A stretch of DNA of 64,000 bases from Nocardiopsis metallicus. GTDB lineage: Bacteria > Actinomycetota > Actinomycetes > Streptosporangiales > Streptosporangiaceae. A program made the position numbers and the translations under genes. Position 1 is the stretch's first letter. The number at the start of each line of letters is the position of its first letter. The stretch is from assembly GCF_014201115.1 (NCBI RefSeq), contig NZ_JACHDO010000001.1, forward strand, positions 7,626,001 through 7,690,000. Direction: 5' to 3'. Below, one piece after another: positions 15,542 to 34,112 of this stretch. The notes beneath the pieces are model-generated. The model saw only the letters and a list, made by a program, of their open reading frames with translations, ran no database searches and was not told where the DNA came from.

Positions 15542-15628
15542 ATGTCCAGACAGGCCTCGACGGCCCCCGGCGCGGAGCACCCCCTTCCCGGGGCCTTCGC
15601 CCACCAGGCGGAAGGGACGAACGCGTGA
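15542..15628 (+). CDS. 28-codon ORF translationally coupled to the RND gene
   Basis: The ATG at 15542 opens a 28-codon frame (MSRQASTAPGAEHPLPGAFA...) whose TGA at 15626-15628 overlaps the GTG start of the RND permease as GTGA. TAGGAG lies upstream, at a slightly long distance. The peptide has no recognisable domain. The exact 4-bp overlap suggests a leader peptide that sets translation of the permease, but coding function is unproven. Confidence 0.4.
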   Translation: MSRQASTAPGAEHPLPGAFAHQAEGTNA

Positions 15629-19536: not shown

Positions 19537-20742
19537 TCACGCCGCCATCACTTTGTAACCCTGCTTCGTGAACGTCCGGTTGAGGACCTTGATGGCGTTG
19601 CTGGTAGACCCCTGGAGGAGGTGCCAGTAGACACGTTCTGTAGTTGCCGAGTTCCGGTGGCCCAGGATCTTGGCCACCTGGGGGAGCGACAACTGGGCTT
19701 CCTGAATCGCCCGTGACGCGAACGCGTGCCGCAGCCAGTGGAACGTGAACTCATCCGGGAGCTCCGCTGCTCCCACACCGTCACGGAAGTCCTGATAGAA
19801 CATCGTTAGGTTGGCATAGGGCCCGAGCTTACCCGGGCACAACTGACCGGTCTCCGGCGTACTGTACCGGCCGATGTGGTCATCCAGCTTCTCCCGCAGG
19901 TAGTCCGTCACGGGGATGTCCCGGTACTGGTGAGCCTTCCGGCGCTTGAGGGGCACCAAGGTATTCACGTCCTTCACCTGCCGGTTGATGCGCAGGACGG
20001 CACCTTCGTCGGTCTCGATGATCTGGTCTCGGCGTACCGCCAGGGACTCACCGATACGGAGCCCGCCAGCGTAACCGAGGTACACAGCGATCTGCCAGGG
20101 CCCGAAGATCCGGCTGGCCAGGATGTCCACCTGTTCCAGCGTGGGGGAGACGAAGACCCGGGACTCCACGTGTTCAGGGAGCTGGACACCAGCACAAGGG
20201 CTGCTCTCGACAATCTTGCTCGCCTTGAGGTCCTTGAAGACAGCGGCAACGGCGATGTAGATCGAGGCGACCGTGTTCGCGGCATACCCCTCCTCGATCT
20301 TCCCAGCGACCAGCGACTTGACGTGCTCCCGCGTGACCTCCGTCTCCTGAAGTGCTCCGAAGGAAGTCCCGCCCAGGTCGAACCCGTAGATATGGGTTCG
20401 CAGGTTGCTTCGGTAGCTGATCGTGGTGCTATCCGGCCCCACCCGCTGCTCAAGAAACTTCTCGGCTGCCTCTTGGAAGCTCCGCCCCTTTCTTCGGGGC
20501 GCCTTCACGACCTCTTGGACCGCGTGAGCACCCTCGACCTTCGCCGCCCAGCGGTTGGCGGCACCCCAATGGTCCCCGTCGTAGTCCTTCTTCTTGAAGG
20601 TCAGGGTCTGGAGCTTCGATCCTCGACCGCCGTTGCGCCACTGCACCGTGGCGGAGTGATCACACTTCTTCCAGACGCGGATCTTCTTCTTCTCGTCGCT
20701 GAGGCCCTTGGCGCAGGGGCAGCGCTTGAATACCGAGGCCAT
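19537..20742 (-). CDS. int: tyrosine site-specific integrase
   Basis: A 401-aa phage-type integrase. The N-terminal arm-binding part is Cys/Lys-rich (KRCPCAKGL...VWKKCDH), followed by a SAM-like core-binding domain (about 85-190). The catalytic residues are present: Arg in YAGGLRIGE (about 244), Lys in the KRRKAHQYRDIP strand, His-x2-Arg in HWLRHAFAS (about 339), His in LGHRNS and the nucleophile Tyr in TTERVYWHL (about 373). It lies 55 bp inside attL and should catalyse integration at the 16-bp core. Its ATG overlaps the stop of the excisionase gene (TGATG). Confidence 0.95.
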   Translation of the reverse strand: MASVFKRCPCAKGLSDEKKKIRVWKKCDHSATVQWRNGGRGSKLQTLTFKKKDYDGDHWGAANRWAAKVEGAHAVQEVVKAPRRKGRSFQEAAEKFLEQRVGPDSTTISYRSNLRTHIYGFDLGGTSFGALQETEVTREHVKSLVAGKIEEGYAANTVASIYIAVAAVFKDLKASKIVESSPCAGVQLPEHVESRVFVSPTLEQVDILASRIFGPWQIAVYLGYAGGLRIGESLAVRRDQIIETDEGAVLRINRQVKDVNTLVPLKRRKAHQYRDIPVTDYLREKLDDHIGRYSTPETGQLCPGKLGPYANLTMFYQDFRDGVGAAELPDEFTFHWLRHAFASRAIQEAQLSLPQVAKILGHRNSATTERVYWHLLQGSTSNAIKVLNRTFTKQGYKVMAA

Positions 20743-21703: not shown

Positions 21704-22570
21704 ATGAACGATCGTATCGTCGCCGCCCTCGAAGCGGCCACCACAATCCCCTGGTGGGACCTCACCCCCGCCCTCACGGGGGTAGCTCTCATCGCCCTCC
21801 TCCTCATCCGCTTCATCGCCTCTGCGGTACGCGCCATCCGAGACCTATCGGAGGAGAAGCGCGACACCACCATCCAACTCCTCCTCACCATCGGCTTCCT
21901 CGTGGTGGTCGGCGCACTCGTCGCCGAAGGCATCATCGGATTTGCCCGCGACGAGATGGGCCTCGGCCCCGTCCTCAGCGTCGCCGTGTTCATCGGCATC
22001 GACGGCGTCGCCGGATTCTTCGCGCACACCGCCTACCGGTGGGCCAAGGTCGGAGGCAGGGCCTTGTTCCCCCGGGCGATGGTCATCCTCATCATCGCCG
22101 GGTCCGCCTGGTTCCAATGGATTCACGCAGCCGACCTCGCCTTGGCCGCGCAAGTCGCCCGAGCCGGGATGCCACTCATCGCCGCCCTACTCCTGGAAAC
22201 CCTCCTCGTCTCCCGCAGGAAGACGTGGAAGCAGGCCCAGACGACTCTCGGAACCTCCGTTCCCCGAGCGCGGTGGCTGTGGGACCCCATCGGTTCCGCC
22301 GGTATCACCCGACGCCAGCAGCTCTGGGCCGTGCCGGACTGGGAGGACGCCCTCGAACTCCACATGATCCGGATGGAAGCGATCCAGCGCCTGCGCCGCG
22401 AGTTCGGCCCCTTCTGGGCGTGGAAGGTACCCGCAACTGTCTCGGTCCGTCTCCGCAAGGGATTCCGAGTGTCCGAGGCCGCCGACATGGTGGACGACAT
22501 CATCACCGAACACCAGGAGCAGGAACCGCAGGCCAAGGAAGAAGCCCTGGAGCAGATCATCCCCCCGGCA
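21704..22570 (+). pseudogene. DUF2637 membrane protein, N-terminal part (interrupted by IS66)
   Basis: 289 codons of a DUF2637 protein from ATG 21704 (AGGAAACG upstream). Membrane segments appear at about 17-42 (PALTGVALIALLLIRFIASA), 52-75, 82-105 and 120-160, followed by a long soluble tail. DUF2637 proteins occur in actinomycete plasmids and integrative elements near transfer genes (Spd-like). The frame is broken after codon GCA at 22568-22570, exactly where IS66 copy 1 begins. Skipping the IS and one copy of the 8-bp duplication, the frame continues at 24184 and ends at 24390, which rebuilds a 357-aa protein. In its present state the frame runs 16 codons into the IS. Confidence 0.85.
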
Positions 22571-24175
22571 GTAAGCATTCAGAAGGCGTTGGGGACTGCG
22601 GAGGGTAGATGGCCTTAGCTGGTCAGGCGGAGGCGGGGATGGGCGGCATCCACAACTGTCCGGTGAACGCCCGGCGCAGCGCTTCGAACGCGCTCACCCC
22701 GTGCTTGCGGGCCGAGTCGATGTAGGAACGCACCCCGAGCCAGGCCGCCGCCCCCTGACGGGACTGGTGGCAACCGGAGATCTTCACCTGGGTCTTGAGG
22801 GGTCTGAGCGCTCTTTCGGCGAGGTTGTTGGTGAAGGGCACCAGGTGGGGCCGGTCGGAGAAGCCCAACACCTGCTCGGCCCGCTCCCGCAGACGCTCGA
22901 GCAGGTTGCGGGCCGGTGATTGCTTCCTTCCTTGGGCCCGGGGATGGCAGGACAGCCCGACCGCGATGCCGTGGTGGAACAACTCCCCTTGGGCCAGGAG
23001 CACCCCGGCGGGGATGTGCTCGGCCTGGCCGCAGCGCACACGCCCCGCCTCGCGGGCCAAGGTGGCCAGCGCGGACCGGATCTGACGGTGCCAGTGCTGG
23101 CCGGGGTGGTCCTGTTCGGCAGCGGTGAGCTCGCGGATCAGGTGCGCCCCGCACAGCTGGTGGGCGCACGTGTAACCCGAGTACAAGGCCAAGGAGTCGT
23201 GCACCAGGGTGCCGGTAAAGCCCGGCAGTACCCCCAACGTGTTCGCCCCGGCTCGTGAACGCGGAGCTAGACCCAGCAGGGTCAGGTGCTCGTTGCAGGC
23301 CACATGCAACCAGCACCGTTGGTCCTTGATGCGGGTGGTGGTCTCATCGGCGTGCAGCACGTGGGCCAGGGTGAGCAACGCCCGGATCAGGTTGAGGCTG
23401 TCGCTGACCAGAGCATGGGCCTCGCCCAGTAGATGCGACACCCATCCGGTGGAGACCTTCGCGCCGGTCAGGTCGTTGATGAGCTGTGCGGTGCGCTCCA
23501 CCGGGATGTGCTGGAACACGAGCAGGTAGACGGCCAGGGTGCGCAGGTGGGGGCCGTAGGAGGAAGGGGAGGCGGCCAGTTCCTGGGGCATCGCTGCTTG
23601 GGTGATGCTTCCGCACTGGCACGCGCAGGTGTGGGCGCGGTGCTCACTCACCTGCACCGTGACCAGGGGGATGTCGCGGACCTGACGGCGCTGGTAGCCA
23701 ATGGAGGAGGCCGGGTCCAGCTCGGCGTGGCACCCGGTGCAGGTGGCGGGCAGATGGTCGTGGACCTGGTCGGGGTTTTCGACCATAGGCAGTCCGAAGC
23801 CTTCAGCGCCTGGTTGGCGTCCGCGTTTGCGGGCGCTCTTCTTGGCGGGTGCGCGTTCGGGCTTGTCGAACAGGTCCGAGGAGGGTGGCAGGGAGGAGTT
23901 GCCGGAGTTGCGTCCCAGGCGGCGTTCGAGCTGCGCGACCCGGGTGGTCAGACGCGCGTTGTCGGCTCGGAGCTGTTCGTTCTCGGCCTTGAGGCGGGTG
24001 ATCTCTTCGGTCTGCTGGGCCAGGTGCTGGCGCAGGGCGGTGTTTTGTTCGTGGAGCACACCGATCAGCGCGAGCAGGTCCTCACGCGAGGCGGTCTCCA
24101 GTCCCGACGGCATGGTGGACATCGTGCCTGGTCCAGTGTCGCCCTGTCAGGCGAACCCAGCAACTGAATGCTTAC
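22571..24175 (-). mobile_element. IS66-family element, copy 1 (ISBst12-like)
   Basis: The 1605-bp element has terminal inverted repeats beginning GTAAGCATTCAG (22571-22582, and its complement at 24164-24175). The flanking CCCCGGCA at 22563-22570 and 24176-24183 is a perfect 8-bp target duplication, the length expected for IS66. It carries a single transposase gene and no tnpA/tnpB, as in the ISBst12 group. It splits the DUF2637 gene. It is nearly identical to copy 2 at 30844-32445 (3 bp length difference). Confidence 0.95.
22623..24122 (-). CDS. IS66-family transposase, copy 1
   Basis: A 499-aa transposase. An N-terminal coiled-coil/leucine zipper (LIGVLHEQNTALRQHLAQQ...) covers about 15-75, a linker SLPPSSDLFDKP follows, then a zinc-finger-like block (CTGCHAELD ... 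CACQCGS, about 130-175) and the IS66 DDE catalytic core with HADETTTRIKDQRCWLHVA near 265 and NNLAERALRPLKTQVKISG near 440. A KISGCHQS motif near the end is typical. It differs from copy 2 by one extra Ser in the SLPPSS stretch. Confidence 0.95.
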   Translation of the reverse strand: MSTMPSGLETASREDLLALIGVLHEQNTALRQHLAQQTEEITRLKAENEQLRADNARLTTRVAQLERRLGRNSGNSSLPPSSDLFDKPERAPAKKSARKRGRQPGAEGFGLPMVENPDQVHDHLPATCTGCHAELDPASSIGYQRRQVRDIPLVTVQVSEHRAHTCACQCGSITQAAMPQELAASPSSYGPHLRTLAVYLLVFQHIPVERTAQLINDLTGAKVSTGWVSHLLGEAHALVSDSLNLIRALLTLAHVLHADETTTRIKDQRCWLHVACNEHLTLLGLAPRSRAGANTLGVLPGFTGTLVHDSLALYSGYTCAHQLCGAHLIRELTAAEQDHPGQHWHRQIRSALATLAREAGRVRCGQAEHIPAGVLLAQGELFHHGIAVGLSCHPRAQGRKQSPARNLLERLRERAEQVLGFSDRPHLVPFTNNLAERALRPLKTQVKISGCHQSRQGAAAWLGVRSYIDSARKHGVSAFEALRRAFTGQLWMPPIPASA

Positions 24176-24183
24176 CCCCGGCA

Positions 24184-24390
24184 CGTAACCCTCTTGTGTT
24201 CGAGAAGGCCGTGAAGGCCGAACTCGAAGCGATCCGTAGCGACTCGCTGCGATACTCCGAACGGGACTTGTGCAGCGCTTACGGCGTGCCTGAGACGAAC
24301 CGCCGGTGGGCGAAGGCGGTCCGGAAGGAAGCGGACCGCCGCTACACGGAAACCGCATCACAGGTCGCTCACGAACCCCTCCCAGCCTGA
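24184..24390 (+). pseudogene. DUF2637 protein, C-terminal part beyond IS66 copy 1
   Basis: 69 codons including the stop. The frame joins the N-terminal part exactly (…IIPPA then RNPLVFEKAVKAELEAIRSD...). The tail carries a helix-turn-helix-like stretch (SERDLCSAYGVPETNRRWAKAV) and ends HEPLPA. It has no start of its own; GTG codons inside it lack a ribosome site. Confidence 0.8.
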
Positions 24391-24471
24391 GGACTACATC
24401 ATGGGGGCTCAGACCGGATGGTCTGGGCCCCATTTGAATACACCCCATACCGAGAAAGCCCGCCCTATTCT

Positions 24472-25647
24472 GTGACTGTCGAGATCGCAGAAAGGGTGGG
24501 CCTTTTGCATACCCAGGATAGCCCCTCCAGCGCTAAGCGCTGGGAGATCGGCCGCACCATCAAAGAGCTCCGCCAAGCCCTGGACCTATCCCAGGCCCGG
24601 CTCGCTAACCTGCTCGCAAACGCGGGTGGAGCAACGGTCGATCGCAGCCACATCAGCAGGTGGGAGAACGGCCGCTGCGCCCCTTCTCCGTACTGGCTGC
24701 GCCACCTCGCCGTTGTTCTACAAGTGCCGATGGAGCTGCTCACCATGGACCGACGAAACTTTTTGACCCACGCAGCCGGTACCGCCATCGCCCCCGTCGT
24801 CGCCTCCGACCTGCTCAGCTCCGGCTTTGACGCCGCCTTGCGCAGCGCCGCACCCTCAGCTGAGGAGTGGGAGGCCAAGGTGGTCGAGTACGGCAAGGCG
24901 TACATGGTCGAAGGCGCCGCCGAGATCCAAAAACGTCTGGCCGCCGACCTTCTCGTGCTTCAGCAGCAGGTCGAGGATCCGCACTCCTGGTCCGTCGCCG
25001 CCCGGTTGGCGACCCTGTACGCCAAAACGTTCCCAGGCTCGGATGGAGTCAAAGCCGTCACCTGGTACCGGTACGCCGCCAGGTTCGCCGACCGCTCCGA
25101 GGAAGACCAGGTACGGGTGTGGGTGCGTGGCCGGGCCGCCATCGCGCTCGGGTACGAAGGGGCTGCGCTGGGGGTGGCCGATCTTCTGAGCCAGCAAGCA
25201 CTCGCGGTCGACGAGCGGCCCTCGCTGGGTGTGGTCAACGCGGTCATGGGCCAGGCCCACGTTGCCGCGCTGCGCGGCGACCACGACCGCGCTCTGGAGC
25301 TCGTGGAGGACGGACGTCGTGCGTTCGACTCTGCCGGGTCCGATGACGCCCCCTCCGACTACGCGGTGCCCTGGTGGAGGTTCAACGTCTTCATCTCACT
25401 GTTGGCCGCGCGGCTGGGTGATGAGCGTCTGGCCGATGAGGCCCAGGCCGAAGCGGCTCGGCACCTGCCCGACAGCTTGCCGCGATTCAAGACCCACTTG
25501 GAGATGCACCGCGGTCTGATGCTCGCCCGTCAAGGAGACCCCTCTGGTTCTGACCTGGCCCAGAGTGCGCTGGACCAACTACCCCCAGAGAAGCACTCCC
25601 TGACGTTGCGGCTGTTGATGGAGGAGATCCAGGCCGCAGCGGCGTGA
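24472..25647 (+). CDS. XRE regulator with C-terminal repeat-type sensor region
   Basis: A 391-aa protein from GTG 24472 (GTG 24496 is an alternative; the frame is open to 24418). The helix-turn-helix at about 24-80 reads TIKELRQALDLSQARLANLL...DRSHISRWENGR. The remainder (about 95-390) is all-helical with TPR-like periodicity (SWSVAARLATLY..., ADLLSQQALAVDERPSLG, GDHDRALELVEDGRRAFD). A twin-Arg-like stretch DRRNFLTHAAGTAIAP follows the HTH, as in other streptomycete regulators of this class. Its place at the head of the kinase/radical-SAM cassette suggests it controls that cassette. The ligand is unknown. Confidence 0.8.
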   Translation: MTVEIAERVGLLHTQDSPSSAKRWEIGRTIKELRQALDLSQARLANLLANAGGATVDRSHISRWENGRCAPSPYWLRHLAVVLQVPMELLTMDRRNFLTHAAGTAIAPVVASDLLSSGFDAALRSAAPSAEEWEAKVVEYGKAYMVEGAAEIQKRLAADLLVLQQQVEDPHSWSVAARLATLYAKTFPGSDGVKAVTWYRYAARFADRSEEDQVRVWVRGRAAIALGYEGAALGVADLLSQQALAVDERPSLGVVNAVMGQAHVAALRGDHDRALELVEDGRRAFDSAGSDDAPSDYAVPWWRFNVFISLLAARLGDERLADEAQAEAARHLPDSLPRFKTHLEMHRGLMLARQGDPSGSDLAQSALDQLPPEKHSLTLRLLMEEIQAAAA

Positions 25648-25692
25648 ATGACACCCCAGATGGCACTCCCCCTAAGCAGGCCACCCGCCTAG

Positions 25693-25703
25693 TGTGAAAC
25701 ACA
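25693..25703. promoter_or_regulatory. small inverted repeat before the cassette
   Basis: TGTGAAACACA (TGTG-AAA-CACA) lies 17 bp before the 24-codon ORF and 45 bp after the regulator gene. It is a candidate operator or -10 region for the cassette. Confidence 0.3.
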
Positions 25704-25719
25704 TCACCTAGGAGGCTTC

Positions 25720-25794
25720 ATGGGCGCGCACTCCCCAACACACGGGTGCACCGCCTCATGGGCCCCGACCACGACCAGCCAGGACACCGTTTAG
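25720..25794 (+). CDS. 24-aa ORF with strong ribosome site, possible leader or precursor peptide
   Basis: The ATG at 25720 follows TAGGAGGCTTC, a textbook ribosome site, and encodes MGAHSPTHGCTASWAPTTTS plus four residues (one Cys, one Trp, many Thr/Ser). It is too short for family assignment. It precedes a 75-aa protein, a kinase and a B12-radical SAM enzyme on the same strand, so it could be a leader peptide of the operon or, more speculatively, a peptide substrate. Confidence 0.4.
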   Translation: MGAHSPTHGCTASWAPTTTSQDTV

Positions 25795-25837
25795 CAGCGA
25801 TGCCCTGGCCTTTTTGTTCTTCCATCACGGAGAGTTC

Positions 25838-26065
25838 ATGCCTACCGACCCGTCGACGCTACCCCGCTCACCCTCGGACCTGGTCGGGTTGGCCCTCATC
25901 CTCCCCTCTCATGAAGCCTCCGAGGAGGTCGCCCACATCCGAAGCCTGCTCACAAAGGCATTGCAGGAAAACGTGGCCCACACCCCTCCCACACAACACC
26001 CCGCCCTGACTGTGCTCACCCCCGCACCGGAAGGCCCCCATGGACAGGACCCACACCCCTCATGA
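25838..26065 (+). CDS. 75-aa hypothetical protein of the cassette
   Basis: ATG 25838 has CACGGAGAG upstream. The protein (MPTDPSTLPRSPSDLVGLAL...) has an N-terminal Pro/Ser stretch, a helical middle (ASEEVAHIRSLLTKALQENV) and a Pro/His-rich C-terminus. I recognise no domain. Its last 26 bases overlap the start of the kinase gene, which implies coupling and supports its being translated. Confidence 0.55.
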   Translation: MPTDPSTLPRSPSDLVGLALILPSHEASEEVAHIRSLLTKALQENVAHTPPTQHPALTVLTPAPEGPHGQDPHPS

Positions 26066-26729
26066 TCTGAACACACCACCGCCTACTGCCCCGGGCGGCT
26101 TCCTCGTCTCGCTCGATGGCCCCTCCGGGGTCGGTAAGACCACAACCACCCAGCAGTTGCACGACTTGCTCGCTGCTGCGGGCCACCGAACGGTCCTTGA
26201 GACGCAACCCTCCAGCTCCCCCATCGGGGCACTCGCACGGCACAGCACGCACACCATCCACGGCCTTGCGCTCACGTGCCTGATGGCAGCCGACCGCTAC
26301 CACCACCTGACGACCACACTCCTTCCTCACCTGGCCGCTGGCCGGGTCGTGGTGTGTGACCGCTACACCCCGACCGCGTTCGTCCTGGACCAGCTCGACG
26401 GCGCTGAAACCGAGTTCATCGCGTCCCTGTACCGGTACGCGCGTCCCGCCGACCTGTTCGTGTTCTTGACTGCCTCGCCCCGGGTGTGTGTTGACCGGGC
26501 CCGTAGCCGTGGCAGCAACTACAGCCGCTTCCACCACACCGACACCCGGTCGGCTGAGCGTGAGCAGGCCCTGTTCGCCGAGACCGCGCAGCGCTACCAA
26601 CGTGCGGGACTGCCTGTGCTGGAGCTTTCCACACAAGCCTTGGCAACACAGGAGGTTGCGGCCCACATCGCCGAGAGGGTCCGCGCGGAGCTTGTTGCTC
26701 GCCATGCCGGAAGGGGGCGGGTGGCATGA
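26040..26729 (+). CDS. thymidylate-kinase-like P-loop nucleotide kinase
   Basis: A 229-aa protein with a Pro/Thr-rich 18-residue start, then FLVSLDGPSGVGKTTTTQQL (P-loop at about 27-35), the DR(Y/H) motif in VVVCDRYTPTAFVLDQLDG (about 104) and a lid-like DRARSRGSNYSRF region (about 150) before the C-terminal helices. This is the dTMP-kinase/deoxynucleoside-kinase fold. A housekeeping tmk is normally chromosomal, so an island copy suggests a special substrate or a phage-like role. It overlaps the preceding gene by 26 bp and the radical SAM gene by 4 bp (ATGA). Confidence 0.82.
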   Translation: MDRTHTPHDLNTPPPTAPGGFLVSLDGPSGVGKTTTTQQLHDLLAAAGHRTVLETQPSSSPIGALARHSTHTIHGLALTCLMAADRYHHLTTTLLPHLAAGRVVVCDRYTPTAFVLDQLDGAETEFIASLYRYARPADLFVFLTASPRVCVDRARSRGSNYSRFHHTDTRSAEREQALFAETAQRYQRAGLPVLELSTQALATQEVAAHIAERVRAELVARHAGRGRVA

Positions 26730-28036
26730 AACTGGTGCTGCTCTACCCCGAGGTGTACGACATGGCCCGGTACAAGGAAGGGCGCCGGGAGTTCCCTCCG
26801 TTCGGGGTGCTCTACCTGGCGTCCGTGGTCGAGCAGGCCGGGCACGAGGTCGCCATCGAGCGCGTCACCCCCGAGCACACCGCTCTGGATCTGACCGGCT
26901 ATGACGCAGTCGGGTTCAGCCTCGCCTCCTCGGCCACCTACGGGCTGATGCTCCAGGCCCGCCGCGAAGCACGCATCGACCCTCGCGCGCTGGTGATGGT
27001 CGGCGGGGTCCACTGCAACTTCTACCCCGAGGAGTCCCTGGCGGACTTCGACGCGCATGTGGCTGCGGTTGGAGAAGCCGAGGAGACCATCCTGGAATTG
27101 CTTGACCACGCTCAAGATCGTGACTTCACCAGTGTGGCTGGTGTGGTCTTCCCTCGCGAGGACCACCCGGTTCGTACCCCACCGAGGGTGTTGATGCGCG
27201 ACATCGACCGGCTCCCCGATCCAGCCCGACACCTGCTACCCACCGAGGATTTCGTGCTCTCCGACCGGCTGGCCGGTACCGACACGCTCATGGCCCACAC
27301 CATGTTCAGTCGCGGCTGCCCCTTTCCTTGCAGCTTCTGCGCGGTCGCCCAACGGCGTATGCAGTACCGGGGCGGTACCTCGGCCCGCGCCGAGCTGGTG
27401 CACCTGATCGAGGCCTACGGCATCGAGGGCTTCGCCATCGTCGACGACAACTTCATCGTCAACAAGAACCGTGTCGCTGATATCTGCACCAACATCACCG
27501 ACCTGGGGCTGCGCTGGTCAGCGCTCTCGCGGGTGGACACCGTGGACCAGCCGCTGTTGGACACGATGGCCGCGGCCGGGTGCATCGAGGTCAAGTACGG
27601 GCTGGAGTCGGGCAGCGAGCGCCTGCTCAAAGCGATGCGCAAGAACACCACCCAGGACAAGATCCGGCGCGCGGTCCACATGAGCGCGGCCGCAGGAATC
27701 CAGGCCAAGGCCTTCATCATCCACGGCTACCCAGGGGAGAACACCGAGACCACCCGGGAGACCATCACGCTGCTGCGCGAGCTAAGGCCCAAGCTGGGCC
27801 GGGTGTCGCTGTTCCGATTCGTGCCCCTACCCGGGACCGAGGTGTACAACAACGCCTTGCTGCACCGTGTACACGGCACCCACCTCCAACCAGGTTTCGA
27901 CGGCGACTGGGAGAGGTTCCACATCCACCACAACGACCGCCACTGGTGGGGGTCCGAAGCCGACTGGGAGGAGACCCAGCGCTCCTACATCGAGCTCAGG
28001 GACTTCGTCGAAGCCGAATGGGGGCCTCAAGGATGA
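26726..28036 (+). CDS. B12-binding-domain radical SAM enzyme
   Basis: A 436-aa protein. The N-terminal Rossmann-like cobalamin-binding domain covers about 1-140 (KLVLLYPEVYDM..., VGGVHCNFYPEESLADFDAH; no DxHxxG motif, so B12 would be bound base-off without His or may not bind). The radical SAM core follows, with CPFPCSFC (CxxxCxxC) at about 198-205 for the 4Fe-4S cluster, a GYPGE motif near 334 and VPLPGTEVY near 372. Such enzymes methylate unactivated carbons or rearrange rings. The substrate is not evident. It is translationally coupled to the kinase gene. Confidence 0.88.
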   Translation: MKLVLLYPEVYDMARYKEGRREFPPFGVLYLASVVEQAGHEVAIERVTPEHTALDLTGYDAVGFSLASSATYGLMLQARREARIDPRALVMVGGVHCNFYPEESLADFDAHVAAVGEAEETILELLDHAQDRDFTSVAGVVFPREDHPVRTPPRVLMRDIDRLPDPARHLLPTEDFVLSDRLAGTDTLMAHTMFSRGCPFPCSFCAVAQRRMQYRGGTSARAELVHLIEAYGIEGFAIVDDNFIVNKNRVADICTNITDLGLRWSALSRVDTVDQPLLDTMAAAGCIEVKYGLESGSERLLKAMRKNTTQDKIRRAVHMSAAAGIQAKAFIIHGYPGENTETTRETITLLRELRPKLGRVSLFRFVPLPGTEVYNNALLHRVHGTHLQPGFDGDWERFHIHHNDRHWWGSEADWEETQRSYIELRDFVEAEWGPQG

Positions 28037-28059
28037 CCGTTCCCGCCGACCGGAAAGGA

Positions 28060-28076
28060 GGAGGCTGTTAGCCTCC
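28060..28076 (+). promoter_or_regulatory. hairpin in front of the winged-helix gene
   Basis: GGAGGCT (28060-28066) pairs with AGCCTCC (28070-28076) over GTT. The left arm contains the GGAGG that would serve as ribosome site for the ATG at 28082, so the hairpin could hide it. Confidence 0.45.
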
Positions 28077-28081
28077 CGCCC

Positions 28082-29254
28082 ATGACCCCCGAACTCGCGC
28101 CCCTGATCGTGGACTCCCACCTGCTCTCCGACAGTGAGGCGTCCCGGCTGTGGCAATGGGTGCTGGCCCGTCAAGGGCTGGCACCCCACGCCCGGCTCGG
28201 GTCGGTCGAGGAAACCGCCGACCTCGCCCTGGGGTTGCACGCCGCGCGGCTGCCGTCCCCGTTCCAGACTGTCGCCGCGCGGCTCGATGACCCAGCGCAG
28301 GTGCTGCGGCTCCTGGCCCCGGCTGGGCGGCGCGACCTGGTGACGGTGCGGTGTATGCGCAAGACCCTGCACACCCTGCCCCTGCCCCTGGCCTCGGCCG
28401 CCCACGCCGCCACCCGCCACTTCCGAGAACGGGACGCGCTGCGCGCCATGCTCAACGCCCAGGCTCCTGAAGCCGATGTCGTCACGGCCACCGCTGACCT
28501 CGCCGGCCTGCTTGAGCAGGACGGCCCCACCGGGCACCGGGACATCGAGAAACGCCTGGCCGCGCACGGTCACGCCGTGCCTGTGGTGCGGGTGGCGCTC
28601 AAACTCGCGTGGGAGCGCGGCATCCTCACCTATGCCAACACCTCACCGGTGTGGAACCGCGAACGACGCACCTTCGACCTGACCGCCCGCGCCTACCCCC
28701 GTTGGGATACCGACATGAGCCGGGAGCGAGGAGCCGAACAGTTGATGGTCGTCTACCTGGACCGGTACGGGCCGGTGAGTATGCGCGACGCCACCTGGTG
28801 GTCTGCGTTGTCGCGCCGGGATGTGGGGCAGGCATGGCTGCGAGCGGGTGTGAAGCTGGTCGAACTACAGGTGCCGTCGTGGTCGCCGCACCCGATGGTG
28901 ATGGCCGCGGACCGGTTCACCGAGTTCACCCAAGCCGAGGCACAGGAGAGCGGCGTGCACCTGCTGGCACACGAGGACGTCGCGCTCAAGGCCTACTTCG
29001 AGACCCGCCGCCGCTACCTCGGCCCGCTGCCAGCACCCAAGGCGTTCAACCAGATCGGGGAGGTGCGGCCGACCGTGATGATCGACGGTCAGGTCGTCGG
29101 AACGTGGGCATGGGACAACAGGGATCTCCGAATACGCCACCAGATCGCGCGCGGGATGGCCTCCGCGAGCGCCCATTCTCGGGTGCGCACAGCTGCACGA
29201 AGGACGAGCGCGCTCCTGCGTGCTGGTCTAGATCACACATCGGCCGCGAGCTGA
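28082..29254 (+). CDS. winged-helix protein related to AlkZ/YcaQ DNA glycosylases
   Basis: A 390-aa protein of the HTH_42 (AlkZ/YcaQ) type. The N-terminus has a helix and then SVEETADLALGLHAARLPSPFQTVAARL, where active glycosylases carry a QxQ or QxD catalytic motif. By my alignment the corresponding residues here are His-Ala-Ala, so the catalytic pair seems lost. Further conserved-looking parts are VTVRCMRKTLHTLP near 90, a winged-helix stretch at about 150-190, DRYGPVSMRDATWWSAL near 225 and a PTVMIDGQVVGTWAW strand near 330. It may bind DNA lesions or RNA without excising bases. It follows the radical SAM gene after 45 bp, in the same orientation. Confidence 0.72.
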   Translation: MTPELAPLIVDSHLLSDSEASRLWQWVLARQGLAPHARLGSVEETADLALGLHAARLPSPFQTVAARLDDPAQVLRLLAPAGRRDLVTVRCMRKTLHTLPLPLASAAHAATRHFRERDALRAMLNAQAPEADVVTATADLAGLLEQDGPTGHRDIEKRLAAHGHAVPVVRVALKLAWERGILTYANTSPVWNRERRTFDLTARAYPRWDTDMSRERGAEQLMVVYLDRYGPVSMRDATWWSALSRRDVGQAWLRAGVKLVELQVPSWSPHPMVMAADRFTEFTQAEAQESGVHLLAHEDVALKAYFETRRRYLGPLPAPKAFNQIGEVRPTVMIDGQVVGTWAWDNRDLRIRHQIARGMASASAHSRVRTAARRTSALLRAGLDHTSAAS

Positions 29255-29325
29255 CCCGTTCACCTCCTCTCGCACACGTCTCGCTGGTAGCGTCCGTGCT
29301 CACACACCCCGAGAAGGGAACCCGC

Positions 29326-29646
29326 ATGGAGCCGCTACCCGAACGCCCGCTCACCCTGGCCCAGATCCAGGATTACGTGGCGAAGATGGAGGTCGAGAGG
29401 GGGTTCTCCGACAGCACCTTGGTTGAGCAGACCCTGAAACTCGCGGAGGAGACCGGAGAGGTCTGCAAGGCCGTGCGCAAACAGGCCGCGCTCAGTGTGG
29501 ACCCCACCAGCACGGTCGGTGGTCTGGGTGAGGAACTGGCCGACGTACTGATCTACCTCGCCGCGATCGCGAATCGAAGCGGCATCGACCTCAGCCAGGC
29601 GCTGCGCGACAAGGAAGCGGTCAACGAGAATCGCACCTGGGCCTAG
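29326..29646 (+). CDS. MazG-like nucleotide pyrophosphohydrolase
   Basis: A 106-aa all-helical protein starting at ATG 29326 with GAGAAGGGAA upstream. The metal-binding EExxE...ExxD pattern is present: EETGEV (about 45-50) and EELADVLIYLAAIAN (about 75-89). Small MazG-like enzymes hydrolyse (d)NTPs to monophosphates. Downstream of a thymidylate-kinase-like enzyme, it fits a cassette that makes or controls an unusual nucleotide. It is the last + strand gene of the cassette; DUF397 is convergent. Confidence 0.82.
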   Translation: MEPLPERPLTLAQIQDYVAKMEVERGFSDSTLVEQTLKLAEETGEVCKAVRKQAALSVDPTSTVGGLGEELADVLIYLAAIANRSGIDLSQALRDKEAVNENRTWA

Positions 29647-29673
29647 GGGAACCGCCTGCACTGCCCTGGAAGG

Positions 29674-30066
29674 TCAGGCCTGACCAGACAGGCAGGCTTC
29701 GTATGCCTCCAGGGCCTCCGGTGTGTTCAGCGGGGAGGGCACCCAGGTCGCCTCGACCTCGGTCTCGCCGCGCTGGATCTTGATCTCCTCCTCGGTGAGG
29801 TACTCCTCCGGGATGTCGAACTCGCCGTCACGAGCGCCCAGGACGAAGGCCTCCCACTCGGCGGGGGTGAAGAAGAGCGTGCCCTTCTCCGGGGACTTGC
29901 CGTCGCGCACCGCGCGGAAGCCGTCGTCGAACTCGGCGACCTCCACGATCGCCTCGGAGTCCGGGTTGGACAAGGAGGAGCGCATCCACACCGCGTGCGT
30001 GGTGTCGTGCCACTTCTCATTTCCCATGGCTTCGGGCGGGATTTTTTGGCTGGTGTTGGTCACCAT
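29674..30066 (-). CDS. DUF397 protein with C-terminal extension
   Basis: A 130-aa protein (ATG 30066 with AAGGAGG upstream). DUF397 core: WHDTTHAVWMRSSLSNPDS...VEVAEFDDGFRAVRDGKSPEKGTLFFTPAEWEAFVLGARDGEFD. It is longer than usual, with about 40 extra residues at the C-terminus (EEEIKIQRGETEVEATWVPS...). It belongs to the second DUF397/DUF5753 set in the window. Confidence 0.82.
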   Translation of the reverse strand: MVTNTSQKIPPEAMGNEKWHDTTHAVWMRSSLSNPDSEAIVEVAEFDDGFRAVRDGKSPEKGTLFFTPAEWEAFVLGARDGEFDIPEEYLTEEEIKIQRGETEVEATWVPSPLNTPEALEAYEACLSGQA

Positions 30067-30119
30067 GAGCCTCCTTGTGTCGTCGTCTGAGCGGGGTAGC
30101 CTTGCCGAGTGCGCATGCA

Positions 30120-30152
30120 CCGGCCCCCGCCAACTCACCTGGCGGGGGCCGG
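30120..30152. terminator. hairpin between the two DUF397 genes
   Basis: CCGGCCCCCGCCA (30120-30132) pairs perfectly with TGGCGGGGGCCGG (30140-30152), 13 bp over 7 nt, followed on the + strand by TTTTGGG. It would end transcripts from the left on the + strand, and may also attenuate the minus-strand DUF397 mRNA. Confidence 0.65.
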
Positions 30153-30163
30153 TTTTGGGTGCT

Positions 30164-30340
30164 CTATCGGCGGACAGCCTCGACGAACGCCTTCCACTCA
30201 GGAGAGGACGCTTCCAGGTGGCCCAGGTGGCGGTTCTGCGTGTCTCGCACAGCGGCACCCTGCTCGGTGGCGCGAGCCTCCACGCAGTGGCCGCCGTTGC
30301 CGTTGCTGTACGACGACTTGTTCCACTGATCGGTCATCAT
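30164..30340 (-). CDS. DUF397 protein (short)
   Basis: A 58-aa protein with the standard DUF397 sequence: MMTDQWNKSSYSNGNGGHCV, EARATEQGAAVRDTQ, then SSPEWKAFVEAVRR at the end. Its start ATG overlaps the stop of the XRE-DUF5753 gene (ATGA), the usual operon arrangement of this pair, which tells that the now broken regulator was its partner. It was found by reading the reverse strand directly. Confidence 0.85.
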   Translation of the reverse strand: MMTDQWNKSSYSNGNGGHCVEARATEQGAAVRDTQNRHLGHLEASSPEWKAFVEAVRR

Positions 30341-30843
30341 GTGATGCTGCCTCGAATCTCTTCCATACGGGCCCTGGACGCGGGTGCCGGTAGAGCAGAG
30401 CTCCTCAGCTCCGCGAATATCCGGTCGTAGCTTGCCACAGCCTCGGGTTGCTTGAGTGACACACCCGTCTCTTGACTCTCGATATAGACGAACGTGCCGG
30501 AATCAGGTACTTCCATCAGCGTAAACGACCCGCCCAGACCCGCATGTCCCTCAGTGGCGATGGGAACGATCTGGATCTTGATACGTGGGCGGTAGGACAG
30601 GTTGATCAGGTGGTCGATCTGGGCCTGCATCACCTTCGGGTCCTCGAACCGCCGCAGCAGCACGACCTCGTCCAACAGGACCGTGATGGTAGGCGGATGG
30701 GCGCGGTCGATGAGCTTCTGTCGGTTCTTCCTCGTGTTGATGATCTGGTCGATTACCTCGGTAGTAGCCTCCGGGTTCGACAACTCGCTGATGGCTCGCA
30801 CGTACTCCTCCACCTGGTAAAGCCCAGGTACTAGCCCATGTGA
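30337..30843 (-). pseudogene. XRE-DUF5753 regulator, 3' part (broken by IS66 copy 2)
   Basis: The C-terminal DUF5753 segment: GLVPGLYQVEEYVRAISELSN, LLDEVVLLRRFEDP, then IKIQIVPIATEGHAGLGGSF near the C-terminus. The frame has no start here; it is cut by IS66 copy 2 at 30843/30844. Across the IS and one copy of the 8-bp duplication it joins the piece at 32446-32593 in frame (…KIREYSH-GLVPGLYQ…). Confidence 0.85.
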
Positions 30844-32445
30844 GTAAGCATTCAGTTGCTGGGTTCGCCTGACAGGGCGACACTGGACCAGGCACGATGT
30901 CCACCATGCCGTCGGGACTGGAGACCGCCTCGCGTGAGGACCTGCTCGCGCTGATCGGTGTGCTCCACGAACAAAACACCGCCCTGCGCCAGCACCTGGC
31001 CCAGCAGACCGAAGAGATCACCCGCCTCAAGGCCGAGAACGAACAGCTCCGAGCCGACAACGCGCGTCTGACCACCCGGGTCGCGCAGCTCGAACGCCGC
31101 CTGGGACGCAACTCCGGCAACTCCTCCCTGCCACCCTCGGACCTGTTCGACAAGCCCGAACGCGCACCCGCCAAGAAGAGCGCCCGCAAACGCGGACGCC
31201 AACCAGGCGCTGAAGGCTTCGGACTGCCTATGGTCGAAAACCCCGACCAGGTCCACGACCATCTGCCCGCCACCTGCACCGGGTGCCACGCCGAGCTGGA
31301 CCCGGCCTCCTCCATTGGCTACCAGCGCCGTCAGGTCCGCGACATCCCCCTGGTCACGGTGCAGGTGAGTGAGCACCGCGCCCACACCTGCGCGTGCCAG
31401 TGCGGAAGCATCACCCAAGCAGCGATGCCCCAGGAACTGGCCGCCTCCCCTTCCTCCTACGGCCCCCACCTGCGCACCCTGGCCGTCTACCTGCTCGTGT
31501 TCCAGCACATCCCGGTGGAGCGCACCGCACAGCTCATCAACGACCTGACCGGCGCGAAGGTCTCCACCGGATGGGTGTCGCATCTACTGGGCGAGGCCCA
31601 TGCTCTGGTCAGCGACAGCCTCAACCTGATCCGGGCGTTGCTCACCCTGGCCCACGTGCTGCACGCCGATGAGACCACCACCCGCATCAAGGACCAACGG
31701 TGCTGGTTGCATGTGGCCTGCAACGAGCACCTGACCCTGCTGGGTCTAGCTCCGCGTTCACGAGCCGGGGCGAACACGTTGGGGGTACTGCCGGGCTTTA
31801 CCGGCACCCTGGTGCACGACTCCTTGGCCTTGTACTCGGGTTACACGTGCGCCCACCAGCTGTGCGGGGCGCACCTGATCCGCGAGCTCACCGCTGCCGA
31901 ACAGGACCACCCCGGCCAGCACTGGCACCGTCAGATCCGGTCCGCGCTGGCCACCTTGGCCCGCGAGGCGGGGCGTGTGCGCTGCGGCCAGGCCGAGCAC
32001 ATCCCCGCCGGGGTGCTCCTGGCCCAAGGGGAGTTGTTCCACCACGGCATCGCGGTCGGGCTGTCCTGCCATCCCCGGGCCCAAGGAAGGAAGCAATCAC
32101 CGGCCCGCAACCTGCTCGAGCGTCTGCGGGAGCGGGCCGAGCAGGTGTTGGGCTTCTCCGACCGGCCCCACCTGGTGCCCTTCACCAACAACCTCGCCGA
32201 AAGAGCGCTCAGACCCCTCAAGACCCAGGTGAAGATCTCCGGTTGCCACCAGTCCCGTCAGGGGGCGGCGGCCTGGCTCGGGGTGCGTTCCTACATCGAC
32301 TCGGCCCGCAAGCACGGGGTGAGCGCGTTCGAAGCGCTGCGCCGGGCGTTCACCGGACAGTTGTGGATGCCGCCCATCCCCGCCTCCGCCTGACCAGCTA
32401 AGGCCATCTACCCTCCGCAGTCCCCAACGCCTTCTGAATGCTTAC
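30844..32445 (+). mobile_element. IS66-family element, copy 2
   Basis: The 1602-bp element has the same GTAAGCATTCAG ends as copy 1 (30844-30855 and complement 32434-32445). The 8-bp duplication CCATGTGA is at 30836-30843 and 32446-32453. It is in the opposite orientation to copy 1, and 3 bp shorter because of one missing Ser codon. Confidence 0.95.
30897..32393 (+). CDS. IS66-family transposase, copy 2
   Basis: A 498-aa protein identical in reading to copy 1 except that the linker reads SLPPSDLF instead of SLPPSSDLF. Zipper, zinc-finger-like and DDE regions are intact, so it is probably functional. Confidence 0.95.
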   Translation: MSTMPSGLETASREDLLALIGVLHEQNTALRQHLAQQTEEITRLKAENEQLRADNARLTTRVAQLERRLGRNSGNSSLPPSDLFDKPERAPAKKSARKRGRQPGAEGFGLPMVENPDQVHDHLPATCTGCHAELDPASSIGYQRRQVRDIPLVTVQVSEHRAHTCACQCGSITQAAMPQELAASPSSYGPHLRTLAVYLLVFQHIPVERTAQLINDLTGAKVSTGWVSHLLGEAHALVSDSLNLIRALLTLAHVLHADETTTRIKDQRCWLHVACNEHLTLLGLAPRSRAGANTLGVLPGFTGTLVHDSLALYSGYTCAHQLCGAHLIRELTAAEQDHPGQHWHRQIRSALATLAREAGRVRCGQAEHIPAGVLLAQGELFHHGIAVGLSCHPRAQGRKQSPARNLLERLRERAEQVLGFSDRPHLVPFTNNLAERALRPLKTQVKISGCHQSRQGAAAWLGVRSYIDSARKHGVSAFEALRRAFTGQLWMPPIPASA

Positions 32446-32593
32446 CCATGTGAGTACTCACGGATTTTCGTTGCTGTTTGCTCAGACTCAGCGACTTCTC
32501 GGAAGTACGCAGTCATGCCTTCGCCGCTGAAGACCGCGTCCCATGCATCCACGATGACCCCACGTGCGTTAACCGCAGTGTCAATGCGGAGCA
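32446..32593 (-). pseudogene. XRE-DUF5753 regulator, middle part between IS66 copy 2 and IS5
   Basis: About 49 codons (LRIDTAVNARGVIVDAWDAV ... TATKIREYSH) that correspond to the segment just after the helix-turn-helix. The 5' part with the HTH is missing: the IS5-family element starts at about 32594, and no HTH is seen on its far side, so that part was deleted. Confidence 0.75.
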
Positions 32594-33497
32594 CTGAGCG
32601 CTTTTCATCCTGCTTCTCGGAGTTGGAGGGCGAGCACGGCTCGGGTGATCTCACCGGCCCGTCGCGGGCAGCACCGCAGCCGGCGTAGCACGTCCCAGTT
32701 CTTGAGCTGGGCGATGGCCCGCTCGCCCGGGCCGCGAAGCTTGGCGTGCTCGGAGTTGGCGTCCTTCTTCCACTGCGGCTTGCCCCGGCCCTTGAACGGG
32801 CAGAACACCACGTCCGAGAGCCCCACGTACCCCTTGTCACCCAAGCCGAGGAGCCCCGCGGCAGCGATGCGCTCGGCGATCCTCCATACCCGTGCGGCTC
32901 TGGTGTCGTGCACCGAGCCCAGGAGTGACCACGAGGTCCACAAGGGCTCGCCGTCCGGGGCCGCGACGACCTGGATATTCATGCCGTGCCGCTTGTGCTT
33001 GCCCGAATAGAACGGGCGGTCGGCCGCGACGCGGTCGCAGGCAATGAGCGTGCCGTCCACAATCACATACCCCCACCCTGTGCGGCGTGCGCGGCGCAAC
33101 CCCTGCTCCAGGGTGGGTGCCAGCTTCGCGAGCAGGGCCGTGGTCTCGCGCACGTACCGCCAGGCGGTTGTGGTGCCCACCCCGAAACCGGCCGCGAGGT
33201 GGGTGAACGTCTCGCCCTTGTACAGATGGACCAGCACGAGCAGGGCCTGCTGTGCGGGGTCCAGGCGTCGCCATCGGGAACCGGTGTTCTTGCGGTGGGT
33301 GCGGATGGTGCGGGCGGCCAGGTTCAAGGTCCGGCGTGACAGGGGCAGCGCGGCACGGTAGAAAAGCATGTGGAGCCTCTGGTGGGCTGGTTTTCTTGGT
33401 CGTTAACTCATCTACCAGGGGCTTCTTGCTGTCAGGGGAGGTTTCGGGTAGTCGGTGCGAGCCTGTGACCAGCACCTTCAGGATGAAAAAGGCTCAG
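32594..33497 (-). mobile_element. IS5-family element
   Basis: Imperfect 19-bp terminal repeats: CTGAGCGCTTTTCATCCTG at 32594-32612 and the complement of CTGAGCCTTTTTCATCCTG at 33479-33497 (17/19). One transposase gene fills it. No target duplication is visible, because the left flank is a gene remnant and the right flank is the group II intron. Confidence 0.8.
32605..33369 (-). CDS. IS5-family transposase
   Basis: A 254-aa DDE transposase. An N-terminal HTH_Tnp_4-like domain covers about 35-85 (RWRRLDPAQQALLVLVHLYKG...FGVGTTTAWRYV). The catalytic Asp lies in YVIVDGTLI (about 107), the second Asp in LLGLGDKGYVG (about 180) and Glu in GPGERAIAQLKNW (about 217). The stop codon lies inside the left terminal repeat. 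The frame is intact. Confidence 0.9.
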   Translation of the reverse strand: MLFYRAALPLSRRTLNLAARTIRTHRKNTGSRWRRLDPAQQALLVLVHLYKGETFTHLAAGFGVGTTTAWRYVRETTALLAKLAPTLEQGLRRARRTGWGYVIVDGTLIACDRVAADRPFYSGKHKRHGMNIQVVAAPDGEPLWTSWSLLGSVHDTRAARVWRIAERIAAAGLLGLGDKGYVGLSDVVFCPFKGRGKPQWKKDANSEHAKLRGPGERAIAQLKNWDVLRRLRCCPRRAGEITRAVLALQLREAG

Positions 33498-34112
33498 GTG
33501 CGCCACGAGGCGCTGTTCAAACACATATCCGAGTGGAGGTGAAAGCAACTCCGCCGCCTTCTCGTCGTAGCGAGAAGGTGAAGCAAGGGGCAGTCTGAAG
33601 CGGAGATCGCCGCCAAGGACGGGAAGCAGCCCTGACAATGCCTGGATGGCCCAGTACTACCGGATGGGTCATGCCGCGGTTAGCGAGATGGGACGGTATA
33701 CGAAAGGAACCGGTGCCATAAAACCCCCTAATTTTTCGCCAGCTCTAACCCGGTGGATCCGGGCTGGAAAGCAGTGCGCATCCACCAACGGAGAGGACCA
33801 TAGTTCTCTCTCGTGGTGGAAAACTCCCGAGCCGGTATGTGAGATCTGGCAGGGAGGCCCTGGTGAAGGTCTACGGCGTAACCAGGGCGATACTGCGGGG
33901 GTAAAGCCGGGTACCTCGCCCGTCGATCGGAGAACAGCGAACGTGGGAACCACCGGTCCTCACTCCCTTCCCTTCTCGATGCCATCGAGAAAGGAAAGGA
34001 TAGGTGCGATGCTCACCGAAGAAGGCCAGTGGGGCGGAGACGCCGTAGTAGTCCGAGACCGGGAAAGCCGGTCACATGGCGAAGGGCGGCAGCGATTCCA
34101 AGGAGAACACAG

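What the first reader, a model, noticed from the sequence alone, without database searches (positions are those of the whole stretch)
24472..29646. Candidate undescribed cassette: kinase, B12-radical SAM, AlkZ-like protein, MazG
A dedicated XRE regulator heads a co-directional set: two tiny ORFs, a dTMP-kinase-like enzyme, a radical SAM enzyme with a B12-type domain, a winged-helix AlkZ/YcaQ relative and a MazG-like pyrophosphohydrolase. The first three large genes overlap or nearly touch. Together they could make, license or police a modified nucleotide (production by the radical SAM and kinase, clean-up by MazG, sensing by the glycosylase-like protein), or serve as a phage-defence or nucleoside-product module. 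I know no described system with this set.
Basis: partly seen in the sequence, partly recalled or inferred. Interest (0 to 1): 0.75.

Follow-up and report, generated by a model that had tools for sequence, protein, structure and literature searches.

The report
Mobile nucleotide-making cassette with DNA-repair antidotes
A small gene set that recurs on bacterial chromosomes, plasmids and phages appears to make an unusual nucleotide and to carry its own enzymes for cleaning that nucleotide out of the cell and its DNA; it may be an undescribed way for bacteria or their parasites to fight phages, but no activity has been tested.

Summary
The genes are there and the set is conserved. The core is a dTMP-kinase-like protein, a B12-binding radical SAM enzyme, an AlkZ-like protein and MazG (26040-29646); the XRE gene and tiny ORFs are not part of it. 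Of 22 related loci, 21 keep the AlkZ neighbour, 14 a nucleotide kinase and 21 a MazG or NUDIX gene (two antisense). Supporting roles are thus filled by different proteins: glycosylase by AlkZ or AlkA type, kinase by TMK or cytidylate-kinase type, hydrolase by MazG, NUDIX or CYTH. In 14 of 19 type I loci AlkZ has its own promoter-like element 3-9 nt before its start. Best explanation: radical SAM enzyme and kinase make a modified nucleotide; glycosylase and hydrolase protect the bearer. Carriage by mobile elements suggests conflict with phages or rival elements. Chemistry and purpose are inferred. Here the cassette sits beside an integrase and between two independently inserted IS66 copies. No paper describing the set was found in the open-licence library searched.

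The parts
26040..26729 (+). dTMP-kinase-like P-loop kinase (cassette branch; the genome has a canonical dTMP kinase elsewhere)
   Evidence: PF02223 75.7 bits; TIGR00041 70.5 bits, below its cut-off of 83.25; canonical dTMP kinase elsewhere, 166 bits; TMK-type cassette kinases of both architectures form one branch against 13 canonical ones
26726..28036 (+). B12-binding-domain radical SAM enzyme; CxxxCxxC at C198, C202, C205, invariant in 19 aligned sequences
   Evidence: PF04055, PF02310; alignment A1
28066..28074 (+). Extended -10 promoter-like element TGTTAGCCT, 7 nt before the AlkZ start codon (leaderless-type promoter)
   Evidence: TGNTANNNT 3-9 nt before the start as I set it in 14 of 19 type I loci; only 2 such sites on both strands of 17.3 kb around the window cassette
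28082..29254 (+). AlkZ-like (HTH_42) protein, predicted DNA glycosylase or modified-DNA reader; H53-A54-A55-R56 where AlkZ has its catalytic Q-x-Q
   Evidence: PF06224 100 bits; AlphaFold2 model pLDDT 92.9, Foldseek best hit AlkZ 5uuj, E 4.7e-15, TM 0.73/0.77; motif
29285..29293 (+). Extended -10 promoter-like element TGGTAGCGT, 32 nt before the MazG start
   Evidence: such an element precedes 7 of the 17 MazG/NUDIX genes examined
29326..29646 (+). MazG-type nucleotide pyrophosphohydrolase
   Evidence: PF03819 31.9 bits; NUDIX stands in its place in Streptomyces type I loci
24472..25647 (+). XRE/HTH_31 regulator; neighbour, probably not part of the conserved cassette
   Evidence: PF13560 44.9 bits; only a 26% match, in L014, among the loci over 5 kb held at that call
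25720..25794 (+). 24-aa ORF behind an AGGAGG; not shown to be a gene
   Evidence: sequence; no DNA similarity in relatives over this stretch
25838..26065 (+). 75-aa ORF overlapping the kinase start; not conserved
   Evidence: no Pfam match; no tblastn match
22571..24175 (-). Insertion sequence of IS66 type (family name recalled), left copy, own target duplication CCCCGGCA
30844..32445 (+). Insertion sequence of IS66 type (family name recalled), right copy, own target duplication CCATGTGA
19537..20742 (-). Tyrosine integrase of the element that seems to carry the cassette
   Evidence: PF00589 54.4 bits
21635..22618 (+). DUF2637 protein; its ORF runs into the left IS copy, so the gene is apparently split by it
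   Evidence: PF10935 34 bits; position of the IS end

Best explanation
This is a mobile four-part cassette that makes a modified nucleotide and protects its bearer from it. Inferred steps: (1) the B12-type radical SAM enzyme alters a nucleotide, probably a pyrimidine one because its partner is a TMK-type or cytidylate-kinase-type enzyme; (2) the kinase raises the product towards the triphosphate; (3) the product hinders polymerases or is built into newly made DNA, above all that of a replicating phage or rival element; (4) a triphosphate hydrolase (MazG, NUDIX or CYTH) clears it from the host pool; (5) a DNA glycosylase (AlkZ type or AlkA type) removes it from host DNA. In the window's type the glycosylase gene usually has its own promoter-like element (14 of 19), and the hydrolase gene sometimes (7 of 17), so the antidote could be made whether or not the producing genes are on. 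Shown here: the conserved set, the exchange of different proteins in the supporting roles, the shared kinase branch, location on a phage, on plasmids and beside an integrase, and the promoter-like element. Not shown: any chemistry, any antiviral effect.
For: Co-occurrence from three starting points. Replacement in each supporting role: AlkZ-like versus AlkA-like glycosylase (profile hit to AlkA structures E 1.1e-7, catalytic Asp column invariant in 17 sequences); TMK versus Cytidylate_kin2 (both are P-loop kinases); MazG versus NUDIX versus CYTH. The genome has its own canonical dTMP kinase and three other AlkZ-like proteins with standard motifs, so the cassette copies look specialised. Mobile setting: phage SF3, two genes from its integrase end, conjugative plasmid pSP01, other Streptomyces plasmids, IMG/VR viral contigs, integrase in the window, coupling-protein gene of the TraG type near L021. 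Patchy: 7 of 297 genomes of the order carry the type I radical SAM gene, own genome included.
Against: No substrate, product or phenotype is known. The AlkZ-like motif lacks both catalytic glutamines, so glycosylase activity is not assured. No kinase was found in 8 of 22 type I loci, among them all six Streptomyces ones (one of these, L020, starts at a contig end); L011 lacks AlkZ and kinase; L021 lacks a hydrolase. Of 13 type II loci found from the AlkA side, 4 lack a detected kinase and 2 a hydrolase. The CYTH genes lie antisense to the cassette, so they may be neighbours rather than parts. The promoter-like element is absent before AlkA in the 23 type II loci examined. The match to the candidate defence pair PDC-M51 is weak, and the six PDC-M51A hits in 197 genomes had no cassette partner in their short flanks. 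For type I loci other than the window and L021 the mobile setting was not determined: the scan meant for it failed its positive controls. Type I was not found in viral contigs. A MazG-type hydrolase could instead remove a normal competing nucleotide, as in phage base-replacement pathways (recalled).
Confidence: 0.45

Rival explanations
1. A base-replacement or base-modification pathway: radical SAM and kinase make a modified dNTP, the hydrolase removes the competing normal dNTP, and the element's or host's DNA carries the new base; the glycosylase polices wrong or foreign DNA.
For: Synthesis enzyme + dNMP kinase + dNTP pyrophosphohydrolase is the known recipe of phage base replacement (T4 hydroxymethylcytosine with its dCTPase, Z-genome phages with MazZ: recalled). 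The set occurs on phage SF3 and plasmids.
Against: No further ORF family recurs beside the type I set in more than 7 of 24 loci compared; the one in 7 is the DUF5753 protein, so no polymerase or replication gene travels with it. A glycosylase is not part of the known recipes (recalled).
Confidence: 0.2
2. A small biosynthetic cluster for a nucleoside-type antibiotic or genotoxin, with AlkZ/AlkA and MazG/NUDIX as self-resistance.
For: AlkZ-like proteins are enriched in Streptomyces biosynthetic clusters and some give self-resistance (PMC9040887, abstract and passages). The B12 radical SAM OxsB of oxetanocin is a distant relative by profile (E 7.9e-11).
Against: No exporter, phosphatase or tailoring gene recurs with the type I set; a kinase charges the product towards a triphosphate, which does not normally leave cells (recalled); carriage by phages and plasmids. 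One locus (L011) has an MFS transporter next to the radical SAM gene, but lacks AlkZ and kinase.
Confidence: 0.18
3. The glycosylase is the weapon: it removes modified bases from invading phage DNA, as Brig1 does, and the other genes adjust nucleotides to steer or limit it.
For: DNA glycosylase Brig1 excises alpha-glucosyl-hydroxymethylcytosine from T4 DNA (PMC11078745, abstract and passages).
Against: Brig1's top structural matches were uracil DNA glycosylases, not AlkZ or AlkA types; a radical SAM enzyme, not one glycosylase family, is the common part here.
Confidence: 0.1
4. An ordinary grouping of unrelated housekeeping genes, or cargo of an IS66 composite transposon.
For: Two inverted IS66 copies flank the region.
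Against: Each IS66 copy has its own 8-bp target duplication, so they came independently; the set recurs in relatives whose held stretches have no match to this transposase.
Confidence: 0.03

Closest known systems
Viperin / prokaryotic viperin (SAND) antiviral nucleotide dehydratases
   Same: Radical SAM enzyme proposed to act on a nucleotide to make an antiviral analogue; a link of some viperins to nucleotide kinases is recalled, not seen (the Nature 2021 paper is not held)
   Different: P0004 has a B12-binding domain and scores with B12 radical SAM families; no viperin model among the 25 of 35 NCBIfam hits shown; a glycosylase and a triphosphate hydrolase accompany it
AZL self-resistance glycosylases in biosynthetic clusters (AlkZ, HedH4)
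   Same: HTH_42/AlkZ fold over the full length
   Different: H(A/S)AR motif instead of (Q/H)xQ, QxD or Hx(S/T)(D/E); partners are nucleotide enzymes
PADLOC candidate system PDC-M51 (A radical SAM, B kinase)
   Same: P0004 hits PDC-M51A (41.5 bits) and P0003 PDC-M51B (21.2 bits); L021 proteins 52.2 and 41.9 bits
   Different: Low scores; six PDC-M51A hits in 197 genomes of the class show no cassette partner within about 1.5 kb; none of the ten papers names PDC-M51
Oxetanocin A radical SAM OxsB
   Same: B12 radical SAM; OxsB acts on an adenine deoxynucleotide (recalled); profile E 7.9e-11
   Different: The OxsB chain is 744 aa; other structures score better (9ccb, AprD4 6fd2); partners differ
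Brig1 anti-phage DNA glycosylase
   Same: DNA glycosylase used against phage DNA (PMC11078745, passages)
   Different: Different glycosylase fold by its own authors' structure search; 'radical' occurs nowhere in the main text

Membership tests
Viperin/SAND | Radical SAM protein of the viperin family | tested here: not met
   No viperin model among the 25 of 35 NCBIfam hits shown for P0004; the best are B12 radical SAM families
Viperin/SAND | Makes 3'-deoxy-3',4'-didehydro nucleotides | not testable with these tools
   needs biochemistry
AlkZ-like (AZL) glycosylase | HTH_42/AlkZ fold | tested here: met
   PF06224 100 bits; Foldseek 5uuj E 4.7e-15
AlkZ-like (AZL) glycosylase | (Q/H)xQ catalytic motif, or QxD (YQL), or Hx(S/T)(D/E) (AZL2) | tested here: not met
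   HAAR in 18 and HSAR in 1 of 19 aligned cassette proteins; H53 and A55 align to the two catalytic Gln of AlkZ
AlkZ-like (AZL) glycosylase | Lies in a biosynthetic gene cluster | not tested
   no cluster-finding tool
AlkA / HhH-GPD glycosylase (type II protein) | Profile similarity and catalytic Asp | tested here: met
   profile hits to AlkA structures, E 1.1e-7 and 2.4e-7, Asp column invariant in 17; single-sequence Pfam only weak, HhH-GPD in 3 of 17, best E 0.0037; AlphaFold2 model of low confidence, not used
dTMP kinase (TIGR00041 equivalog) | Score over the curated cut-off of 83.25 bits | tested here: not met
   70.5 bits; Pfam family PF02223 is met
MazG pyrophosphohydrolase domain | PF03819 over cut-off | tested here: met
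   31.9 versus 22 bits
PDC-M51 candidate defence system | Both A and B profiles matched side by side | tested here: inconclusive
   both matched but weakly; the library gives no cut-off
IS66 composite transposon | One target duplication flanking the whole unit | tested here: not met
   each copy has its own duplication

The most novel reading that the evidence does not exclude
An undescribed class of self-immunised nucleotide-analogue immunity: a B12-type radical SAM enzyme and a dedicated kinase make a toxic deoxynucleotide that ruins replicating phage DNA, while a dedicated DNA glycosylase and a triphosphate hydrolase keep the host clean. Different glycosylases, kinases and hydrolases have been swapped into the same roles, and phages and plasmids carry the cassette to exclude rivals.
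Probability: 0.4. Interest if true: 0.92.

Novelty: categorically new. Interest (0 to 1): 0.78.

Why it matters
If the reading holds, bacteria have another radical-SAM route to antiviral nucleotides besides viperin, with a built-in base-excision antidote. It would place uncharacterised AlkZ-like and AlkA-like proteins and accessory dTMP kinases in one pathway, point to a new nucleotide worth isolating, and explain why phages and plasmids carry such genes. Even if the purpose differs, the exchange of enzymes in fixed roles around a radical SAM enzyme makes the pathway directly testable.

Tried and rejected
Composite transposon: rejected by separate target duplications. XRE and tiny ORFs as cassette parts: rejected for lack of conservation. 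Known RNA such as a B12 riboswitch: no Rfam match in 22000-33000 at gathering thresholds. Type I cassette on viral contigs: none found with A1, the L021 radical SAM protein or A2. Radical SAM enzymes of the two types as one clade: the free tree separates them, but the tree that holds them together is not rejected and scores 1.52 log units higher (p-AU 0.543; sub-sample of 10 type I, 11 type II and 31 other rows, six long rows left out), so left open. Fold of the type II glycosylase: AlphaFold2 mean pLDDT 48, discarded. Integrase motif scan: missed known integrases, discarded. A hairpin just before the AlkZ start in the window and L004 was seen and not pursued. Promoter-like element before AlkA in type II: 0 of 23, some starts set roughly. 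PDC-M51 as the same system: not shown. Papers: (listings) gave no description of the set; passages of two comparative papers on defence systems do not describe it.
Full report
WHAT IS IN THE WINDOW. The described genes are present and co-directional. The kinase and radical SAM genes overlap by 4 nt; the next two gaps are 45 and 71 nt. The region lies between two near-identical insertion sequences of IS66 type (inverted arms of 1311 and 295 nt at 100%; family name recalled). Each copy has its own 8-bp duplication, CCCCGGCA on the left and CCATGTGA on the right, so they inserted independently. Left of them are a tyrosine integrase and a DUF2637 gene, which look like part of an actinomycete integrating element (this label is recalled). 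Between cassette and right IS lie DUF397 and DUF5753 proteins; the latter ORF starts just inside the IS end and lacks the start of its Pfam profile.

THE SET IS CONSERVED (TYPE I). A scan of about 85,000 species with the radical SAM protein gave 27 loci. Five (L025-L028, L030) are distant and show no cassette partner. Of the other 22 (L004-L024, L029; L016 and L017 score alike and may be near-duplicates; L029 has only a radical SAM remnant, L022 a split match), profile scans find AlkZ-like next to it in 21 (not L011); a kinase in 14 (10 TMK-type, 4 of the type that Pfam calls Cytidylate_kin2 in L013; none found in L011, L015-L018, L020, L022, L029, of which L020 starts at a contig end); and MazG in 13 and NUDIX in 6 on the same strand, antisense MazG in 2 (L011, L023), none in L021. 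Hosts span eight actinobacterial families and L021, titled only 'Bacterium 1XD42-1', where radical SAM, AlkZ and kinase sit about 1.1 kb from a TraG-type coupling-protein gene. In the window's order the type I radical SAM gene is in 7 of 297 genomes, its own included (matches over 700 bits); one of these, L037, lacks AlkZ and kinase. In 396 genomes drawn from the phylum only its own has it; 60 others match distantly (at most 243 bits), and the 29 of these loci that were fetched show no partner in their flanks of up to about 1.5 kb. From the AlkZ side, 8 of 297 genomes match at E 1e-40 and 6 lie beside the radical SAM gene. Of the two others, L113 is a distant match. L114 has near AlkZ a radical SAM ORF without B12 domain, a kinase nearer to cassette kinases (46%, E 1e-37) than to canonical ones (37%, E 4e-16), an endonuclease/exonuclease/phosphatase-type protein (23.4 bits, just under its cut-off of 24.5) and CYTH genes. 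The kinase and radical SAM ORFs as read lack their N-terminal parts, so this locus may be broken.

A SECOND ARCHITECTURE (TYPE II). Relatives of about 30% identity on Streptomyces plasmids and in phage SF3 stand in a row: unannotated protein of about 270 aa, B12 radical SAM, dTMP kinase, NUDIX or MazG. Ten plasmid records of 30 with a match were viewed: six hold the full set (L075, L078, L080-L083), four do not (L076, L077, L079, L084) (for L079; for the others). The unannotated protein is an AlkA-type glycosylase: its profile hits 3-methyladenine DNA glycosylases (2jhj E 1.1e-7, E. coli AlkA E 2.4e-7), and the Asp that is catalytic in that family (recalled) aligns to a column invariant in 17 sequences. 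Single-sequence Pfam hits are weak (3 of 17). Of eight viral contigs seven hold it (and, for SF3 itself), two of them alike over the 3 kb compared; L089 is cut by the contig end. From the AlkA side, 13 of 394 genomes of the class match and 13 of 13 have a radical SAM match next to it, weak in two (L093, with a TGA inside its AlkA gene, and L101). With wider flanks a kinase is found in 9 of 13 and a hydrolase in 11 of 13 (2 NUDIX, 9 CYTH). The CYTH genes are antisense, so their membership is less sure. In viral contigs the AlkA side gave 7 loci; six were scanned and hold the full set, the seventh lies on a contig already found complete.

SHARED KINASE, OPEN RADICAL SAM HISTORY. In a tree of 43 kinases the TMK-type cassette kinases of both types form one branch (100/100) against 13 canonical dTMP kinases, with type I inside type II. 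Accessory kinases unlinked to cassettes were not sampled, so this is not proof of exclusivity. The window genome has a canonical dTMP kinase elsewhere (166 bits). The two radical SAM groups are each one clade; whether they are sisters is undecided.

THE ALKZ-LIKE PROTEIN. Its model (pLDDT 92.9) matches AlkZ over the whole length. At the AlkZ catalytic QxQ it has H53-A54-A55, followed by R56; 18 of 19 aligned cassette proteins read HAAR and one HSAR. The published classes are QxD, (Q/H)xQ and Hx(S/T)(D/E) (PMC9040887, passages). The same genome has three other AlkZ-like proteins with QAQ, QID and QAQ. So the cassette copy looks specialised, and its activity cannot be taken for granted.

A SEPARATE PROMOTER FOR THE ANTIDOTE. 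In 14 of 19 type I loci an extended -10 element TGNTANNNT ends 3-9 nt before the AlkZ start as I set it (5-7 nt in the ten where the codon I chose is a start codon); it is missing in L010, three Streptomyces loci and L021. Around the window cassette, 17.3 kb on both strands hold only two such sites, before AlkZ and before MazG. It precedes 7 of 17 MazG/NUDIX genes and 0 of 12 kinase genes (some starts set roughly). Type II lacks it before AlkA (0 of 23). The loci are related, so this is not 14 independent cases. It suggests that AlkZ is transcribed on its own as a leaderless message; that is an inference.

HOW IT MOST LIKELY WORKS. Supporting roles are filled by different proteins of like activity, while a radical SAM enzyme is the maker. 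The simplest pathway is: make a modified nucleotide, charge it, and protect pool and DNA from it. Carriage by a phage close to its integrase, by plasmids and beside an integrase in the window, with patchy distribution, argues for conflict between elements. PADLOC's candidate pair PDC-M51 (radical SAM, kinase) is matched weakly by both proteins, but a link was not shown. Rivals are base replacement, a nucleoside product with self-resistance, and the glycosylase as weapon.

NOVELTY. Ten literature searches in an open-licence library listed no paper describing the set; most subscription papers are not held, among them the prokaryotic viperin paper. The label 'categorically new' refers to the gene set; if the product proves to be an antiviral nucleotide, it would work like viperin without being one.

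Noticed in passing
window 34029-35582: Group II intron-type reverse transcriptase/maturase (PF00078, PF08388).
   Followed up: no
window 15352-18882: 1176-aa AcrB/AcrD/AcrF-family transporter (PF00873, 685 bits), unusual in an actinobacterium (recalled).
   Followed up: no
window 30337-30813 and 29674-30258: DUF5753 ORF that starts just inside the right IS66 end and lacks the start of its profile, beside a DUF397 protein.
   Followed up: partly
   Followed up: partly
   Followed up: partly
L077 4539-9491 (Rhizobium acidisoli plasmid): Three radical SAM genes in a row with an iron-sulfur assembly protein and a CYTH gene downstream.
   Followed up: no
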